From Chloracidobacterium sp. N (lineage in GTDB: Bacteria; Acidobacteriota; Blastocatellia; Chloracidobacteriales; Chloracidobacteriaceae), in contig NZ_CP072643.1 of assembly GCF_018304765.1 (NCBI RefSeq), positions 992,001-1,056,000 on the forward strand: a stretch of 64,000 nucleotides of DNA. Direction: 5' to 3'. The position numbers were made by a program, and so were the translations under genes. Below are positions 16,970 through 53,948 of the stretch, piece after piece (the first letter of the stretch is position 1; each line of letters starts with the position of its first letter). Below the pieces are notes generated by a model, which did no database searches, had not been told where the DNA came from, and saw only the letters and a list, made by a program, of their open reading frames with translations.

Positions 16970-18739
16970 TCAGAAGAAAATCAGGTTGAGCAAAAGCGTA
17001 CCGATGAGGACGACGACGGCCAACGTTCCGGGACGCTGCCAGAAGGCTGCCTCTTCCGTCGGCTTGGGCGTCAGGGCATAGACGAGTCCGGTAAGTTCTT
17101 CATCGGGACGCGGTTTCGTAGCCAGGCTCACAGCAATGGTGACGGTGAAGCACACCGTCCACGCGATGATGGCCGTCCAGAAGGTCTGGGCCAGTTCGCT
17201 GCGGTAGGGCGACAGAAGGACGCCGAAAAAGCCCCCCTTGACGCCGACGGTAGCTCCTTCAGGCAGGGAAATCCCGTGATGAAACGCGGCTGCCAGCGTG
17301 CCCGCCACCAGACCCCAGAACGCGCCGTGTCCCGTGGCGCGTTTCCAGAACATCCCCAGCAGGAACGTCGCAAACAGCGGCGCATTGACAAAGGCAAACA
17401 CAAGCTGGAGCACATCCATGATGTTGTTGAAGGCCGCAGCCACGTAGGCCGTCGCTACCGAGAGTGCAATTCCGCCGACGGTGGCGGCGCGGCCCATCCA
17501 GAGGTAGTGCGCATCGCTGGCGTCGCGTTTGAAATAGCTCTGATAGATGTCATACGTCCACACCGTGTTGAACGCCGTGACATTGCCCGCCATGCCGGAC
17601 ATAAACGACGCCAGCAGCGCCGTCAGCCCCAGGCCGAGCAGTCCGGCCGGCAGGTAGTGCGCCAGCATGGCCGGTGTGGCCAGGTCGTAGTCAATAACCG
17701 GGCGCGCGTTGGTGTCGCGGAGCACTTCGCCAGCATCAGTTGTCTTGGCCGGGATGATGCCGACGCGGGCGACGGTCGCCGCTGGCGTCGCTTCCCGGCG
17801 CGGCTCGACAGTCAGGGCAATCATCCCCGGCAGGATAACCAGAAAGGGAAACAGCATCTTGGGAATGGCGGCAATGAGCGGCGTGCGGCGGGCCGCCGTC
17901 ATGGAGTCGGCCGCCATGGCGCGCTGCACAACGAGAAAATCCGTGCACCAGTAGCCAAACGACAGCACAAAGCCAAGCCCCATCGCCAGCCCGAACCACT
18001 CGACGCCAACCGGATTGCGCGTGGCGTCTCCCATAAACGCCCAGGACTGCGTGTAGGCTGTCGGTGCATAGCCCTGCGTCACGGAGTGCGTCATAAGGCG
18101 CGCCTGAAGCCCCTCCCAGCCGCCAACGTCTTTCAGCCCGAGCAGCACCAGCGGCAGAAAACCAAAGACGATGAGGAAAAACTGCAGGACTTCGTTGTAG
18201 ATGGCGCTCGTCAACCCACCCAGGAAGATGTAGGCCAGCACGATGCCAGCGGCGACGAGCATGCTGGCATCTTCATCCCAGCCGAGCAGCAGCCGGAACA
18301 GCTTGCCCATGGCATACAGTGACACGCCGGAAGAAAACACCGTCATCACGGCAAAGGAAATGGCGTTCAGGGCGCGGGTTTTTTCATCGAAGCGCAGCTT
18401 GAGGTATTCCGGCACGGAGCGGGCCCGCGAGCCGTAGTAAAACGGCATCATGAAAACACCCACAAAGACCATCGCCGGAATGGCCCCGATCCAGTAGAAG
18501 TGGCTTGTGGCAATGCCGTACTTCGCGCCGGAAGCGCCCATGCCGATGACTTCCTGCGCGCCTAGGTTGGCGGAAATGAATGCCAGTCCGGCAACCCAGG
18601 CCGGAATGGCGCGGCCCGACAGAAAGTAGTCGGTACTCGAACGCATGAAACGCTTGAGCGCCACGCCGATGCCAATGACGAAGGCGAAGTAAATCGCCAT
18701 CAGGACGTAGTCAATCCAGGCCAGTCGAACGTCGGTCAT
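16970..18739 (-). CDS. Sodium:solute symporter (SSS family, sugar-type)
   Basis: A 589-residue secondary transporter with about 14 membrane helices and the SSS fold of SGLT-like carriers. Typical segments: DYFLSGRAIPAWVAGLAF, GAQEVIGMGASGAKYG, RSVPEYLKLRF, IFLGGLTSAIYNEVLQF and YWCTDFLVVQRAMAA. With galT in the same operon the likely substrate is galactose or a galactoside taken up with Na+; this is inferred from context. The ATG (18739-18737) lies just inside the 110-bp direct repeat that also occurs at 21205. Confidence 0.9.
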   Translation of the reverse strand: MTDVRLAWIDYVLMAIYFAFVIGIGVALKRFMRSSTDYFLSGRAIPAWVAGLAFISANLGAQEVIGMGASGAKYGIATSHFYWIGAIPAMVFVGVFMMPFYYGSRARSVPEYLKLRFDEKTRALNAISFAVMTVFSSGVSLYAMGKLFRLLLGWDEDASMLVAAGIVLAYIFLGGLTSAIYNEVLQFFLIVFGFLPLVLLGLKDVGGWEGLQARLMTHSVTQGYAPTAYTQSWAFMGDATRNPVGVEWFGLAMGLGFVLSFGYWCTDFLVVQRAMAADSMTAARRTPLIAAIPKMLFPFLVILPGMIALTVEPRREATPAATVARVGIIPAKTTDAGEVLRDTNARPVIDYDLATPAMLAHYLPAGLLGLGLTALLASFMSGMAGNVTAFNTVWTYDIYQSYFKRDASDAHYLWMGRAATVGGIALSVATAYVAAAFNNIMDVLQLVFAFVNAPLFATFLLGMFWKRATGHGAFWGLVAGTLAAAFHHGISLPEGATVGVKGGFFGVLLSPYRSELAQTFWTAIIAWTVCFTVTIAVSLATKPRPDEELTGLVYALTPKPTEEAAFWQRPGTLAVVVLIGTLLLNLIFF

Positions 18740-18846
18740 GTCTTGTCAAACCGGCGCGTCATGCCGAAGAAATGCACGCCGGCTGTGGTGAAGGGATTTG
18801 TCACTGTCGGTCAGGACACGTTAGCGAATTCGAATCCCCGTGGCCA
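18737..18846. repeat. 110-bp direct repeat, copy 1
   Basis: This segment matches 21205-21314 in the same orientation by eye at roughly 80% (CATGTC-TGTCAAACCGGCG, then GCACGCCGGCTGTGG, then ACACGTTAGCG). It contains a CCGGCG ... CGCCGG inverted repeat. In this copy it forms the leader of the symporter gene. The two copies enclose the toxin-antitoxin/IS island. Confidence 0.75.
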
Positions 18847-19166: not shown

Positions 19167-19441
19167 TCAGCCGCCATTTTGCATTGTTAATAACCACTTC
19201 GCTATACTCTGTCTTACACGCTCCAAACGCTCCCGTGAAATTTCACCAATTGCACCAAGAAGCAGGTCGCCCGACACAACAGCCAGGCGCCCTGCCCGGA
19301 TGACACTCGCTACCTTCAAGCCACTTTGTTCAAAATCTTCATCACCTTCCCGAACCACTTCATCAAATCCTGCAAGATAATGCCGCGTCTGGGATGAAAT
19401 CATGCAAATCAGCCAGTCGTCATACTCGCCAGGAAGTTTAC

Positions 19442-20810
19442 CGAAAAAACGCCGTAAAGCCCTACACTTTAGGGCAGGGATATAAGGCGCACGCTGTTTT
19501 ATCAAGCCAAACCTGTGATAAAATAGCAGTATGAGAGTAATGGAAGCCAAGCTACTAAAAGGGACAGCAGAGCAGTATCAGGCTCTGGATGAAGCCATCC
19601 GTACCGCACAGTTTGTCAGAAACAAATGTGTGCGGTACTGGATGGACAACAAGGGCGTAAACAAAGCTGTTCTCTATGCCCACTGCAAAGACCTGGCCAA
19701 AGAGTTTGCCTTTGTCAGGAAGTTAAACTCAGCGGCAAGGCAGGCAAGTGCAGAACGGGCTTGGGCTTCCATCTCCCGTTTCTATACCAACTGCAGAAAC
19801 AAGGCGGTCAAGAAAGGGTATCCCAAATTTAAGAAGCATTGCCGTTCTGTGGAATACAAGGTATCGGGCTGGAAGCTGTCAGAAGATGGGATGACTATCT
19901 CGTTCACCGATGGCTTCGGTGCTGGTACTTTTGCTCTGTATTGCAACGGCGAGGCAAGACACCATATCCTGAACTCCAAAATCAATCGGGTGCGGGTGAT
20001 ACGCAGGGCAGATGGGTACTATGCCCAGTTCTGCCTGGATGTGGAGCGCAAAGAGCAGGGAGCATACACAGGCAATGTGATTGGCATTGACTTGGGCTTG
20101 AAGGCTTTCTACACCGACCAGAACGGCAACCCTGTACAGTGTCCTAAGTTTTTGAGGCGTAGCGAAAGAAGGTTAAAGCAACACCAGCGCAGATTAAGTC
20201 GGAAGTTCAAAAAGGGGGCAAAATCCCAATCCAAGAACTACCACAAGCAAAGAAAGCGACTGGGCAAAGTGCATCTGAAAGTCCAACGCCAGCGTAAAGA
20301 CTGGGCAATTAAGCAGGCACGGTGCGTGGTGGCATCTCACGATGTCGTGGCGTATGAAGACTTGCAGGTGAAGAACCTGGTCAAAAATCATCATCTTGCC
20401 AAATCCATTCATGATGCTGGCTGGTCTCAATTCACTGCGTGGCTGGACTACTACGGCAAGGTGTGGGACAAGGCAGTAGTCAGCGTACCGCCGCAGTACA
20501 CCACACAGGACTGTAGTAACTGTGGGCATTATGGTAGTAAAAACCCTATCCACTAGAACCCATAGTTGTCCTAAATGTGGATTTGAATTAGACAGAGACC
20601 AGAATGCGGCTTTGAACATCCTCAAGAAGGGACTAAGCATCTTGGGAATGGAGTGGCAAAACAGTACCTTTGGGCAAAAGGGAACTGCCTCGAAAGAGGG
20701 AACGCTTGGGGAGAATGCACCGCTGCTTTAGAGGGGCAACCTGATGAAGTAAGTGCGCTCGCAGAACCAAGAACAAGAATCCCCTGCCTTTAGGCAGGGG
20801 AGTATGTCAA
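19442..20810 (+). mobile_element. TnpB-only IS200/IS605-type (IS1341-like) element
   Basis: A 1369-bp element bounded on the left by target TTTAC (19437-19441) and a left-end hairpin GCCCTACACTTTAGGGC. On the right it has CCCCTGCCTTTAGGCAGGGG (20781-20800) and the end AGTATGTCAA. There is no target duplication, as expected for this family. It carries only tnpB; no Y1 transposase tnpA is present, so it would need a helper in trans. Its exact boundaries are set (to within one base, because C runs at both ends) by the mazF reading frame that is restored when it is removed. Confidence 0.9.
19531..20731 (+). pseudogene. tnpB: TnpB RNA-guided nuclease gene, frameshifted near the C-terminus
   Basis: Codons 1-341 (19531-20556) encode a TnpB/OrfB protein with the RuvC-I Asp in GIDLGLKAFYT, the RuvC-II Glu in VAYEDLQVKN and the first zinc-finger pair CSNCG. 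The frame then changes. The second pair CPKCG and the RuvC-III Asp in DRDQNAALNIL are read from the next frame (20522-20731). One base deleted within about 20527-20540 would restore a protein of about 400 residues. Without it the product lacks half the zinc finger and one catalytic Asp. A guide omega-RNA would be expected to overlap the 3' end up to 20810, but it is not visible as a separate feature. Confidence 0.85.
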
Positions 20811-20891
20811 CCAACAGGAGTGCAGGTCCTAGCTTCCCTTCTGCCAGATCAGCTTGTGGAAAACGAAAGACGACAACCTGCCCCGCTTTTT

Positions 20892-21104
20892 TCATACAAA
20901 ACTTACCTTGATGTCTGCCGTGCTGTATAACGCAGGCTCATCCTCCATATCCCGCACGGCTGAAGATAACGACAAAGCTCCCCACTCCTGCTTTTCCTGC
21001 TGCTCTGCCTTGACGAGAAGATACTGGATAAAGCTAAGCAACTCTTCCTGGAGTGACCGGGGAAGTTTTTGCACGGATTGGAAAACTTTTTCATCGAATG
21101 CCAT
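20892..21104 (-). CDS. DUF2281-type antitoxin
   Basis: A 70-residue antitoxin-like protein: an N-terminal helical DUF2281 segment (VQKLPRSLQEELLSFIQYLLVK) and an acidic tail with SSAVRDMEDEPALYS, the usual DUF2281 ending. AGGAG precedes the ATG. The stop overlaps the mazF ATG (ATGA), the classic coupled toxin-antitoxin arrangement. Since its toxin is broken, this antitoxin is an orphan here, though it could still act on related toxins elsewhere. Confidence 0.8.
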   Translation of the reverse strand: MAFDEKVFQSVQKLPRSLQEELLSFIQYLLVKAEQQEKQEWGALSLSSAVRDMEDEPALYSTADIKVSFV

Positions 21105-21204
21105 GATCTGTTCTCCTGTAAATAAAGGGAATGTTTCCTTTGAACTGTTTTATACCAAAGCCTCTGGGTAGCGTAGGTGGGGATTAACTGGGTCAAACGT
21201 CAGA

Positions 21205-21314
21205 CATGTCCTGTCAAACCGGCGCGTCAGGCCGAAAAAACGCACGCCGGCTGTGGGTGAATGGAGTTGCTACTGTTGGTCGGCACACGTTAGCGGATTC
21301 AGTCCCAGCGGCCA
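21205..21314. repeat. 110-bp direct repeat, copy 2
   Basis: The right-hand copy of the repeat at 18737-18846, same orientation, with a few substitutions and single-base indels. It includes the same CCGGCG/CGCCGG inverted repeat. It lies in the leader between the antitoxin promoter region and the SDR gene. Confidence 0.75.
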
Positions 21315-44751: not shown

Positions 44752-44863
44752 GATGTTCTCCTCGCCGCATCCAACCACTTCAGCACCGACTGGTTGTCTT
44801 ATCACAGTTATGGTTTTGTGACATTTAGATAGAAGTATTCTTTTTCGGGTTGTACAGGTTTAT

Positions 44864-44922
44864 GACGAATGGCGAATGGTGAGTGGCGAGTGGCGAGTAG
44901 CGAATAGTGAGTAGCGAGTAGG
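44864..44922. repeat. Degenerate heptamer array 1
   Basis: About eight tandem copies of variants of GGCGAGT / AGCGAGT / GGTGAGT. The same type of array recurs at 45748-45817, 53016-53103, 53705-53779 and, inverted, at 53879-53948. Confidence 0.7.
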
Positions 44923-44924
44923 TA

Positions 44925-45127
44925 AAGTGGGGGATGTTTTGAGGGGTGCTCTGAGGCAGGCACAGTCGTTGTTGTGAAGTCGAGCGAATCACCTCCCGCT
45001 AGCTGACTGTCCGCACTCAGCCGGTATTTGCGGATAATCCTGTGGCCGGCGAAAATGACACCCGAAAACAATCCGGGTAGCTCTGGCGGCTACACGACGG
45101 AACAAGCCCACCAACGAGGAGAACGAC
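44925..45127. repeat. Duplicated leader of the toxin-antitoxin operon, copy 1
   Basis: About 200 bases nearly the same as 53106-53312, up to the start codon. The last 95 bases have only about two differences and include the ribosome site CGAGGAGAACGAC before the ATG. The inner part 44985-45033 resembles hemN (54171-54220) on the same strand. Together with the heptamer array it fills the 44752-45127 gap. Confidence 0.75.
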
Positions 45128-45358
45128 ATGGGCCCCCTCAGTATCCAGGAAGCTCAAGCATGTCTGGCAGACCTCATTCACCGCCTGTCCCCTGGTGAGG
45201 AAGTGACTCTCACAGAAAACGGTCAGCCTGTCGCCAAACTGGTTGCTACCTGTGCACCACCGCCGCGCCCGGTCCCGAAGCTTGGCACGCAGCGCGGTTC
45301 GGTATTGTCAATGGATCACTTTGACGATCCGCTGGAGGAGTTTGAGGAATACCAGTGA
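45128..45358 (+). CDS. Phd/YefM-type antitoxin
   Basis: A 76-residue antitoxin: N-terminal Phd/YefM DNA-binding fold (SIQEAQACLADLIHRLSPGEEVTLTENGQPVAKLV) and an acidic toxin-binding tail (FDDPLEEFEEYQ). GAGGAG lies ahead of the ATG. Its stop overlaps the PIN toxin start (TGATG). It should neutralise the toxin and repress the operon. Confidence 0.85.
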   Translation: MGPLSIQEAQACLADLIHRLSPGEEVTLTENGQPVAKLVATCAPPPRPVPKLGTQRGSVLSMDHFDDPLEEFEEYQ

Positions 45359-45747
45359 TGCGGTTATTGCTTGACTCCCACGTTCTGATCTGGAGCCAGG
45401 ACGACACCAGTCAGTTGTCGCCAGTTGCGCTTGCCGCCCTTTCGGACCCAGCCAATGACCGCCTCATCAGCGTAGCAACCGTCTGGGAAATCGCTATCAA
45501 GGTCGGCAAGAAACGGCTTCCCTTATCGAAGCCATTCCGGCAATGGATGGATACCGCCATTGCTGATCTCTACCTGACGCTGTTGCCAATCACCCTGGAC
45601 CATACTGACCGGCAGTTGGCATTGCCGCCCCATCACGGTGATCCTTTTGACCGCTTGCTGATTTCACAGTCCCTTGTTGAGGGCATACCGATTGTCGGGA
45701 GCGATACGCAATTTGACGCCTATGGTGTAACCCGTATCTGGGATTAG
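45358..45747 (+). CDS. PIN-domain toxin (VapC-like)
   Basis: A 129-residue PIN ribonuclease. The acidic residues expected for Mg binding are visible: LLLDSHVLIW (Asp near residue 6), VWEIAIK (Glu), GDPFDRLLISQ (Asp) and IVGSDTQFDAYG (Asp). It is intact, in contrast to the truncated copy at 53555. ATG 45358 overlaps the antitoxin stop by one base. Confidence 0.9.
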   Translation: MRLLLDSHVLIWSQDDTSQLSPVALAALSDPANDRLISVATVWEIAIKVGKKRLPLSKPFRQWMDTAIADLYLTLLPITLDHTDRQLALPPHHGDPFDRLLISQSLVEGIPIVGSDTQFDAYGVTRIWD

Positions 45748-45817
45748 TGGGGAATAGGGAATGGCGGAATAGCGAATGGCGAGTAGCGAGTGGCGAATGG
45801 CGAGTGGTGAATAGGTG
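45748..45817. repeat. Degenerate heptamer array 2
   Basis: Starts right after the PIN toxin stop with TGGGGAATAGGGAATGG and continues as GGCGAGT-like heptamers. The sequence just after the stop is nearly the same as that after the truncated toxin at 53704. Confidence 0.7.
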
Positions 45818-46058
45818 AAAGTGGGGGGATGTCTTGAAGGTTGCTCCGAAGCAGGCGCAGTCGTTGTTGTGAAGCCGAACGGATTGTCTCCCGCCGTCGC
45901 TGGTCGTACGCACTCAGCCGGTATTTGCGGATGGTGGCGCAGGTTTGAAGGGGCAAGCCCCTATACTAGTCCTGTAACCAGTCGGGGTTGATGCTTTCAA
46001 AGCCGGCCTCCCGGCACGCGGCATAAGCCGCCTTTGCGACGGGATTCAACCGTTTCTC
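45818..46058. other. Spacer with hemN-like relic fragments
   Basis: 45881-45930 resembles hemN 54171-54220 (CTGGTCGTACGCACTCAGCC against CTGGTCGTCCGCACTCAGCC). 45986-46040 resembles hemN 54673-54727 (GGTTGATGCTTTCAAAGCC shared). Both have the same order and orientation as in hemN. No intact gene is present. Confidence 0.55.
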
Positions 46059-53015: not shown

Positions 53016-53103
53016 GTAGCGAGTGGTGAGTAGCAAATAGCAAATAGCGAATAGCGAGTAGCGAGTGGTGAATGGCGAGTGGTGAGTAGCGAGTGGCGAG
53101 TAG
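53016..53103. repeat. Degenerate heptamer array 3
   Basis: About 12 copies of AGCGAGT/GGTGAGT/AGCAAAT-like heptamers, at the position corresponding to array 1 in module A. It lies in the 52907-53312 gap. Confidence 0.7.
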
Positions 53104-53105
53104 GT

Positions 53106-53312
53106 GGAAGTGGGGGATGTTTTGAGGGGTGCTCTGAAGCAGGCACAGTCGTTGTTGTGAAGCCGAACGGATTGTTTCCCGCCGTCGCTGGTCGTACGCA
53201 CTCAGCCGGTGTTTGCGGATAATCGTGTAGCCGGCGAAAATGACACCCGAAAACAATCCGGGTAGCTCTGGCGGCTACACGACGGAACAAGCCCACCAAC
53301 GAGGAGAACGAC
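53106..53312. repeat. Duplicated leader of the toxin-antitoxin operon, copy 2
   Basis: Nearly the same as 44925-45127 and ending in the same CGAGGAGAACGAC-ATG. 53169-53218 is again the hemN-like fragment. The antitoxin genes that follow the two copies are much less alike than the leaders. Confidence 0.75.
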
Positions 53313-53558
53313 ATGACCGAAACGATTGCCCGCACGTTTCCGGTGACGGCCGTCCAGTCCAAATTGCCTGAACTTCTGGCTGGAATGGCCGGCGGCGAGG
53401 AACTGATCCTGACGGCTGATGGTGTGCCTGTCGCTGTCATCAAGCGCCTGGAGCGCACGAGTTGGCCAAGTGTTCCCGGCACAGCCAAGGACCGCCCGTT
53501 CTGGATGTCCCCCGATTTCGATGCCCCACTCGAAGACTTCGCGGAATATATGGAATGA
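53313..53558 (+). CDS. Phd/YefM-type antitoxin (module B)
   Basis: An 81-residue antitoxin (TFPVTAVQSKLPELLAGM, then GEELILTADGVPVAVIKRL and the acidic tail FDAPLEDFAEYME). It has the same fold as the module A antitoxin but is clearly diverged from it. Its stop overlaps the ATG of the truncated toxin (ATGA). Confidence 0.8.
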   Translation: MTETIARTFPVTAVQSKLPELLAGMAGGEELILTADGVPVAVIKRLERTSWPSVPGTAKDRPFWMSPDFDAPLEDFAEYME

Positions 53559-53704
53559 ACTTCGACTGCCTGACCGCGCTGCCATTTCACCACCGCGATC
53601 CATTTGACCGGATGTTGGTTGCTCAGTCGCTGATCGAGGGCATGCCGCTCCTCAGCGCCGACACGATTTTCGACGCTTACGGCGTAAACCGCATCTGGGA
53701 TTAG
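53555..53704 (+). pseudogene. PIN toxin with internal deletion
   Basis: 49 codons. It keeps the start (MNF) and the last 40 or so residues of a PIN toxin (LPFHHRDPFDRMLVAQ, then SADTIFDAYGVNRIWD). The middle, about 80 residues with the first Asp and the Glu of the active site, is missing, and the frame is preserved across the deletion. The product cannot be an active nuclease. Confidence 0.8.
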
Positions 53705-53779
53705 TGGGGAATGAGGAATGGCGGAATAGCGAGTGGCGAATGGCGAGTAGCGAGTGGCGAGTAGCGAGTGGTGAGTGGC
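53705..53779. repeat. Degenerate heptamer array 4
   Basis: GGCGAGT/AGCGAGT heptamers directly after the truncated toxin stop. It is inverted with respect to array 5, and the two bracket the antitoxin remnant. Confidence 0.7.
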
Positions 53780-53878
53780 AATGAGCTTCTCTGTGCCGCC
53801 GATGGCCAGGACCTTCTCCGGGTTCCGGCTGCCGTCGTCAAATCGTCACGGAAACTCCAGTGGCGCAAACTGATGCTC
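53780..53878 (+). pseudogene. Probable antitoxin gene remnant
   Basis: A short open stretch reading NELLCAADGQDLLRVPAAVV, then KLQWRK. It resembles the middle of small Phd-like antitoxins (GEELLLTADGxPxA). It has no proper start and no end. It lies between inverted heptamer arrays. Confidence 0.35.
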
Positions 53879-53948
53879 CATTCGCCACTCGCCACTCGCT
53901 ACCCACCACTCGCCACTCGCCACTCACCACTCGCCACTCGCCACTCAC
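53879..53948. repeat. Degenerate heptamer array 5, inverted
   Basis: ACTCGCC/ACTCACC heptamers, the reverse complement of the other four arrays. It runs into the last codons of hemN. Confidence 0.7.

What the first reader, a model, noticed from the sequence alone, without database searches (positions are those of the whole stretch)
19167..20895. A TnpB-only element precisely interrupts a mazF toxin gene; removal restores it
Cutting out 19442-20810 rejoins a 119-codon MazF/PemK frame (PALLL-GKLPGEYDDW). The insertion lies directly 3' of TTTAC, a typical IS605-type target and likely TnpB TAM, with no target duplication. This gives exact IS ends and shows that the toxin was disarmed while its antitoxin stayed intact. 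If TnpB recognises the empty site, the element, toxin and antitoxin could form a linked retention system.
Basis: partly seen in the sequence, partly recalled or inferred. Interest (0 to 1): 0.75.

Follow-up and report, generated by a model that had tools for sequence, protein, structure and literature searches.

The report
Jumping gene sits inside bacterial toxin
A small jumping DNA element of a well-known kind has inserted cleanly into one toxin gene of a bacterium, but its own RNA-guided cutting enzyme is broken here and the toxin carries a second lesion, so this looks like a decayed copy rather than a live genetic safeguard.

Summary
A 1369-bp element (19442-20810) lies in a mazF/pemK gene, 3' of TTAC, with no target duplication. 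Seven copies in this genome and 14 in a sister genome share its ends, at 18 distinct sites. The three nearest uninterrupted relatives have one residue where the split codon lies and nothing extra.

The anatomy is IS608-like: TTAC/AAAG at the left, GAAT/TCAA at the right. It encodes TnpB only and has a 3' omega-RNA fold supported by covariation.

The interpretation needs correction. This copy's tnpB is frameshifted and lacks its third catalytic motif in frame. It has lost one omega-RNA base that the other 38 of 39 aligned sequences keep. Its mazF reads Gly where 10 relatives and the sister have Arg, so rejoining the frame would probably not give an active toxin. No cognate TnpA was found. A linked retention system is therefore unlikely in cis; an intact TnpB elsewhere could still use this guide.

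Unexpected: 3 of 18 sites are toxin genes (mazF, two hepT), and 10 of 11 copies with dead TnpB keep the omega-RNA region almost unchanged. Both are post hoc and untested. New member of a known kind; moderate interest.

The parts
19442..20810 (+). TnpB-only insertion element (IS200/IS605 family, IS1341-like organisation, IS608-like ends), 1369 bp
   Evidence: 7 copies in own genome and 14 in G001 with the same ends
19438..19441 (+). TTAC, left cleavage/target tetranucleotide and likely TAM
   Evidence: precedes 18 of 18 distinct sites; CL of IS608 is TTAC (PMC5934647 passages)
19456..19479 (+). Left end: AAAG guide tetranucleotide followed by subterminal hairpin (one changed stem base in this copy)
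   Evidence: AAAG readable at this place in 20 of 21 copies, absent in L004; the script's stricter pattern AAAGCCC counts 19
19531..20556 (+). tnpB first frame, 341 aa, ends early by frameshift inside the zinc ribbon
   Evidence: Pfam OrfB_IS605 and first part of Cas12f1-like_TNB
20522..20731 (+). displaced remainder of tnpB (second zinc half and motif DRDQNAA) in another frame
20665..20810 (+). omega-RNA scaffold (overlaps end of tnpB and the right end)
   Evidence: covariation on 39 sequences; model R1, 148.5 bits here, lowest of the 7 G000 copies
20777..20810 (+). Right end: GAAT, perfect 8-bp hairpin, TCAA
   Evidence: GR GAAT and CR TCAA of IS608
20811..20830 (+). predicted omega-RNA guide (mazF sequence, antisense to mazF mRNA)
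   Evidence: position by analogy with ISDra2 TnpB (PMC8612924 passages); expression not shown
20811..20895 (-). 5' part of mazF (28 codons + 1 nt); Gly in place of the conserved Arg of the RPA motif
19167..19441 (-). 3' part of mazF (2 nt + 90 codons + stop)
   Evidence: Pfam PemK_toxin; 100% identical over 90 aa in G001
20892..21104 (-). antitoxin-position ORF, 70 aa, DUF2281, open, overlaps mazF start by 4 nt
18724..18831 (+). left copy of an imperfect direct repeat flanking the toxin-antitoxin segment
   Evidence: 84% over 124 bp
21192..21300 (+). right copy of the same direct repeat

Best explanation
A TnpB-only IS200/IS605-family element with IS608-type ends was mobilised in trans by a Y1 TnpA (peel and paste). 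It inserted precisely 3' of TTAC inside a mazF/pemK toxin gene and so interrupted it. The site is occupied in both sister species. Since then the copy has decayed: tnpB is frameshifted, one omega-RNA base is deleted, and the toxin has lost a conserved Arg. Parts of the element have been overwritten by dispersed copies (gene conversion or turnover). Shown: ends, target, interruption, lesions, structured 3' RNA, occupied site in G001, uninterrupted homologues. Inferred: TnpA in trans, omega-RNA expression, gene conversion as the cause of mismatching histories, loss of toxin function.
For: Same ends in 21 copies at 18 sites, TTAC before all; TTAC/TCAA/AAAG/GAAT as in IS608 (PMC5934647 passages); for copy L007 the flanks are adjacent in G001 by BLAST coordinates; uninterrupted mazF homologues; tnpB frameshift shared by L001, L002, L004; no Y1 gene with matching ends in G000; the mazF-site copies of the two species are rejected as sisters (AU p 1.8e-92) while the window copy is 99.9% identical to L002; Gly for Arg.
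Against: No transposition, excision or RNA expression was observed. The mobilising TnpA is unknown; of the three Y1 hits in G001 only L046 was examined. Recombination among copies makes tree tests approximate. The Arg change is a prediction of lost activity, not a measurement. The motifs TTAC, CGAAAA and TATGTCAA were part of the pattern that cut out the copies; independent support for the ends is BLAST. The empty L007 site was read from BLAST coordinates; its sequence was not fetched.
Confidence: 0.86

Rival explanations
1. One reading: TnpB cuts the empty mazF site, so the element is kept, and toxin plus antitoxin reinforce this.
For: The guide and TAM geometry would fit (PMC8612924 passages on ISDra2). 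Four of 7 G000 copies keep a full-length TnpB frame that could act in trans, and the omega-RNA of this copy still scores 148.5 bits.
Against: This copy's own TnpB is broken; its omega-RNA has a deletion unique among the 39 aligned sequences; the restored toxin would lack the conserved Arg; the antitoxin frame is open, so excision costs nothing obvious; no cognate TnpA was found to cause excision.
Confidence: 0.1
2. A programmed switch: precise excision in some cells reactivates the toxin, and both halves are under selection.
For: The 3' half is 100% identical between species over 90 aa, where background 1-kb blocks nearby differ by at least 18 per kb.
Against: Low divergence also covers non-coding flank and the neighbouring gene start; the window copy has Gly for Arg; no cognate TnpA found.
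Confidence: 0.03
3. The shared insertions spread between the two species by TnpB-guided homing with co-conversion of flanks, instead of descending from a common ancestor.
For: Next to the three shared junctions there are 5, 3 and 7 mismatches in the adjoining 1 kb; 0 of 29 overlapping background 1-kb blocks near the mazF site are this low (minimum 18). A TnpB gene drive is reported for plasmids (PMC11870625, abstract and passages).
Against: At the mazF and L003 sites the elements differ more than their flanks, the opposite of simple co-transfer; non-shared sites also have similar flanks (L004 left 99% over 653 bases; L005 98% over 584 bases), though L007 has 93%; background is from one region only; ordinary recombination gives the same flank pattern.
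Confidence: 0.12
4. Independent insertions into the same TTAC in the two species.
For: The two mazF-site copies are not sisters on the tree.
Against: Three of 7 G000 sites are shared to the base, which is improbable for a tetranucleotide target; patchy divergence inside the element (L006/L033: 2, 34, 12, 0, 1 mismatches in successive 250-column bins) fits conversion better.
Confidence: 0.05

Closest known systems
IS608 (ISHp608, IS605 group, Helicobacter pylori)
   Same: TTAC target, TCAA right cleavage site, AAAG and GAAT guide tetranucleotides beside subterminal hairpins, no target duplication (PMC5934647 passages; own sequence)
   Different: No tnpA in the element; TnpB sequence belongs to a cyanobacterial cluster
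IS1341 group (TnpB-only elements)
   Same: Single tnpB between LE and RE; 1369 bp lies within the 1252-1393 bp given for the shorter members, and the 420 aa of intact copies within 362-489 aa (PMC9956272 passages)
   Different: This copy's tnpB is broken
TnpB-only elements of cyanobacteria (best: Synechococcus sp. M44_DOE_062 MAG, 76% TnpB identity)
   Same: A TTAC..AAAG left-end pattern in 50 of 77 and a GAAT..TCAA right-end pattern in 75 of 77 loci that could be checked, and a shared omega-RNA fold in the 34 aligned
   Different: Host phylum; TnpB identity 54-76% among the 80 loci kept of 279
ISDra2 TnpB/reRNA
   Same: Same protein family: phmmer E 6.1e-35 to 8bf8_A, 'RNA-guided DNA endonuclease TnpB', residues 13-374 (that this entry is ISDra2 is recalled); RNA from the 3' end, guide from the flank, TAM equal to the target (PMC8612924 passages)
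   Different: TTAC instead of TTGAT; activity here untested; this copy truncated
TldR (nuclease-dead TnpB regulators)
   Same: Dead TnpB with retained RNA (TldR seen only in a search listing with the start of an abstract; the rest recalled)
   Different: Truncation by frameshift, still within IS ends, predicted guide matches its own insertion site; no sign of exaptation

Membership tests
IS200/IS605 family, IS608-like | Insertion 3' of TTAC without target duplication | tested here: met
   18 of 18 distinct sites; adjacent flanks in the sister for L007, the one site where this could be read
IS200/IS605 family, IS608-like | TCAA at right cleavage, GAAT and AAAG beside hairpins | tested here: met
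   GAAT 21 of 21; TCAA 21 of 21 (partly by construction of the extraction); AAAG 20 of 21, absent in L004
IS605 group | tnpA (Y1 transposase) inside the element | tested here: not met
   Element holds tnpB only; 2 Y1 hits in G000, neither with matching ends
IS1341 group | tnpB only between IS ends | tested here: met
   definition in PMC9956272 passages
IS1341 group | Mobilised in trans by a TnpA | not testable with these tools
   No cognate TnpA recognised; G001 hits L049 and L052 not examined
Active TnpB nuclease | RuvC motifs and zinc ribbon in one frame | tested here: not met
   Window copy ends at 341 aa; frame open to 420 aa in 4 of 7 G000 and 6 of 14 G001 copies
TnpB omega-RNA | Conserved structured RNA at the 3' end of the element | tested here: met
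   22 of 28 pairs with both-side changes, 97.4% of cells paired, at most 49.0% when partners are slid, 0 of 500 shuffles as high; rows were chosen by a right-end motif, which favours helix 6
TnpB omega-RNA | Transcribed and loaded with a guide from the flank | not testable with these tools
   No RNA data
MazF/PemK toxin | PemK_toxin domain | tested here: met
   3' part 25.9 bits, cut-off 23.1; the 5' part alone (28 aa) gives no Pfam match
MazF/PemK toxin | Conserved Arg of the RPA motif | tested here: not met
   Gly in window; Arg in 10 of the 12 homologues looked at and in the G001 copy. The other 2 (L152, L155) have no alignable motif; 5 more loci were not looked at
MazEF-type module | Adjacent antitoxin gene | tested here: inconclusive
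   Open 70-aa DUF2281 ORF overlapping the toxin start; antitoxin function not shown

The most novel reading that the evidence does not exclude
Copies with dead TnpB persist as RNA-only parasites. They keep transposon ends and omega-RNA, so that TnpB from the intact copies in the same genome is guided in trans to every occupied site, including mazF. Toxin genes of toxin-antitoxin pairs serve as favoured refuges, because their loss is tolerated while the antitoxin stays.
Probability: 0.2. Interest if true: 0.7.

Novelty: new member of a known kind. Interest (0 to 1): 0.42.

Why it matters
It fixes the ends, target and omega-RNA fold of a multi-copy TnpB-only element family in what is probably a Chloracidobacterium (organism recalled, no tool named it), with closest relatives in cyanobacteria. 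It also gives a natural set of 21 copies, 10 with an open and 11 with a dead TnpB frame, in two sister genomes. That set makes it possible to ask whether TnpB works in trans for dead copies, and whether such elements collect in toxin genes.

Tried and rejected
Rfam at gathering thresholds gave no match in the window. A TnpA of the same element family was looked for: the two G000 Y1 hits (L010, L011) have no matching ends. Of the three G001 hits, L046 belongs to a different tnpA-tnpB element, read by eye; L049 and L052 were not examined. In the 80 TnpB loci, only L124 and L066 have a match to two Y1 queries within the fetched flanks, neither next to tnpB. Programmed frameshifting in tnpB was considered by eye only: the junction needs +1 and I saw no fitting slippery site. 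The same shift sits at three G000 sites and in L034 and L035 of G001, so it is inherited and not a sequencing error. The two mazF-site copies as sisters: rejected; L003/L025 was not rejected (p 0.22). Enrichment in toxin genes: 3 of 18 sites; P(3 or more) is 6.8e-7 if only the 10 HepT- and PemK-like loci (about 3.5 kb) are the target, 7e-4 at 1% and 0.016 at 3% of the genome. The families were chosen after seeing the sites, and insertions in essential genes do not survive, so this is only suggestive. None of the 11 sites found only in G001 was recognised as a toxin gene, but flanking pieces of only 4 of these (L028, L032, L035, L037) went to Pfam; the rest were read by eye or left unassigned. 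The hepT site of L005 was no use as an empty-site test, because G001 shows no match to that module. Literature: the listings of searches showed me, by titles and abstract starts, no paper on TnpB elements in toxin genes; I did not read those papers.

Full report
What was checked. The window is positions 992001-1056000 of a 1,075,403-bp contig of a 3.7-Mb genome in two contigs. A sister genome, G001, has a second contig of 1,012,010 bp; from memory this is the length of chromosome 2 of Chloracidobacterium thermophilum B, but no tool named it.

The element. BLAST finds seven full copies in the own genome, the window's included, and fourteen in G001 (five of them in two pieces), none in five other genomes of the genus. 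All 21 have the same ends; BLAST supports them independently of the motif pattern used to cut them out. Three sites are shared by the two genomes, so there are 18 distinct sites (L029 is L005 again). TTAC precedes all 18; the base before it is T in 14, C in 2, G in 2, and the right flank begins with C in 7, A in 6, T in 3, G in 2, which fixes the element as 19442-20810. For copy L007 the flanks are adjacent in the sister genome by BLAST coordinates (query 601 at 982685; query 1970 also at 982685, so 1971 at 982684); that stretch was not fetched. The ends carry AAAG (20 of 21) and GAAT (21 of 21) beside hairpins and TCAA at the right, the set printed for IS608 (PMC5934647, passages). Only tnpB is encoded. 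The closest relatives by TnpB are cyanobacterial, best 76% in a Synechococcus MAG (80 of 279 loci kept). Of those loci that could be checked, 50 of 77 show a TTAC..AAAG left-end pattern and 75 of 77 a GAAT..TCAA right-end pattern.

The omega-RNA. An alignment of the last 150 bases of 39 elements (5 of the 21 own and sister copies, 34 from the TnpB loci) folds into six helices; 22 of 28 pairs show changes on both sides, 97.4% of cells pair against 78.6% in shuffles and at most 49.0% with partners slid, and 0 of 500 shuffles reach the observed value on any of the five measures. The 34 come from loci L061-L099, of which 36 of 39 had the right-end motif used to pick them; L081 and L084, from the same strain as L083, were left out, and L100-L140 were not tried. 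The motif choice favours helix 6 but not the others. A covariance model finds 7 places in G000 and 14 in G001, all at element ends, and none in five other genomes (150 of 416 to 730 first-look candidates were scored in each genome, so further weak places cannot be excluded). The window copy scores lowest of the seven in G000 (148.5 bits against 155.3-157); it lacks one base in a helix (column 64).

The state of this copy. tnpB runs 341 aa and then stops; the second zinc half and the motif DRDQNAA lie in another frame. Calling it the third RuvC motif is recalled; it aligns with the same motif of solved relatives. The same shift is in L002 and L004. Four of 7 copies in G000 and 6 of 14 in G001 have an open 420-aa TnpB, related to a solved TnpB nuclease (8bf8, E 6.1e-35; best hit an AI-designed relative, 9yyg). 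In G001 the mazF-site copy is broken in a different way: a frameshift, and replacement of the stretch matching window 20577-20660 by GCGAGTG repeats, a replacement shared in place by five G001 copies.

The toxin gene. The 3' part reaches the PemK_toxin cut-off by itself. The two parts align to one uninterrupted protein in the three nearest relatives, with a single residue between them. In G005, at a non-syntenic place, the gene is not interrupted by the element but has an in-frame stop. Related genes were found in 18 of 396 genomes of the phylum. The window's 5' part reads Gly where G001 and 10 of the 12 relatives looked at have Arg (two lack an alignable motif, five more loci were not looked at). 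In another MazF, Ala at the conserved Arg25 abolished activity (PMC8634880, passages). That the two Args are equivalent is my inference from the RP motif. So removal would rejoin the frame, but probably not a working toxin.

History. The window copy is 99.9% identical to L002, in another place of the same genome, and 92.7% to the copy at the same site in G001, repeat array included; over the first 1000 alignment columns the latter two differ at 36 positions. The tree rejects the two mazF-site copies as sisters (AU p 1.8e-92) and L006/L033 (0.004), not L003/L025 (0.22). Divergence inside shared copies is patchy, which fits conversion by dispersed copies. The flanks next to the three shared junctions are unusually alike, 5, 3 and 7 mismatches in the adjoining 1 kb, against a minimum of 18 in 29 overlapping 1-kb blocks around the mazF site. 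Against reading much into this: the background is from one region; beyond 750 bp the right flank of L003/L025 is not alignable; the non-shared sites L004 and L005 also have flanks 99% and 98% alike, while non-shared L007 has 93%.

Where the copies sit. By Pfam on flanking pieces, the sites include mazF, two HepT-like genes (L005, L006), a cas4-cas1 fusion (L007), a SpoIIE-domain gene (L003), a D12-class DNA methylase (L028), the region in or just before another DNA methylase (L032) and an EI24-type gene (L035). L037 is below the DUF4407 cut-off. L002 lies by eye in another tnpB, L026 in a propeller-type gene; the remaining sites were not assigned. Beside the L005 hepT lies an open nucleotidyltransferase ORF of the antitoxin kind; beside L006 it appears truncated (my reading). 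Three of 18 sites in toxin genes is more than expected for target sizes up to 3% of the genome (p 0.016 or less), but the families were chosen after the fact and survivorship favours dispensable genes.

Dead copies keep their RNA. Ten of 11 copies with dead TnpB differ from the consensus of the last 147 bases by at most one change; the window copy is one of these (its deletion; the second listed difference is an alignment-edge base). The exception, L035, has 30 differences yet still scores 145.8 bits with the model. Mean pairwise difference in tnpB is 5.1% among dead and 6.2% among intact copies; in the last 147 bases it is 4.05% among dead copies, raised by L035, and 0.38% among intact ones. 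This fits use in trans by intact TnpB, but also recent death or gene conversion.

Conclusion. The thing itself is an ordinary, partly decayed member of a known kind. The proposed linked retention system is not supported at this locus in cis and only possible in trans.

Noticed in passing
L021:6872-7061 (G001, mazF site) and copies L034, L035, L037, L038: Five G001 element copies have the same stretch of tnpB replaced; at the mazF site the replacement is an array of GCGAGTG/TCGCTAC-type heptamers (the other four arrays were not read). Similar sequence occurs at window 44863-45818 and 53018-53946.
   Followed up: partly
L044:1488-1553 (G001:C2:564428-564493): At the site of copy L004, G001 holds only a 66-bp near-palindrome made of the left end and its inverted complement, perhaps a remnant or hairpin product.
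   Followed up: partly
L008:1506-1546: A solitary left end (41 bp) of the element followed by unrelated sequence.
   Followed up: no
window 18724-18831 and 21192-21300: Imperfect direct repeats (82-89%) flank the toxin-antitoxin segment; in G005 the module is elsewhere, so the segment may be a mobile or duplicated islet.
   Followed up: partly
L005 and L006 flanks: Two hepT toxin genes are interrupted by other copies of the same element; the mntA-like gene beside L005 is open. G001 shows no match to the L005 module.
   Followed up: partly
L007: A copy interrupts a cas4-cas1 fusion gene; in the sister genome the flanks are adjacent by BLAST coordinates.
   Followed up: partly
L014:1191-1550 (G005): The uninterrupted mazF homologue there carries its own in-frame stop, a separate inactivation of the same kind of toxin.
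   Followed up: no
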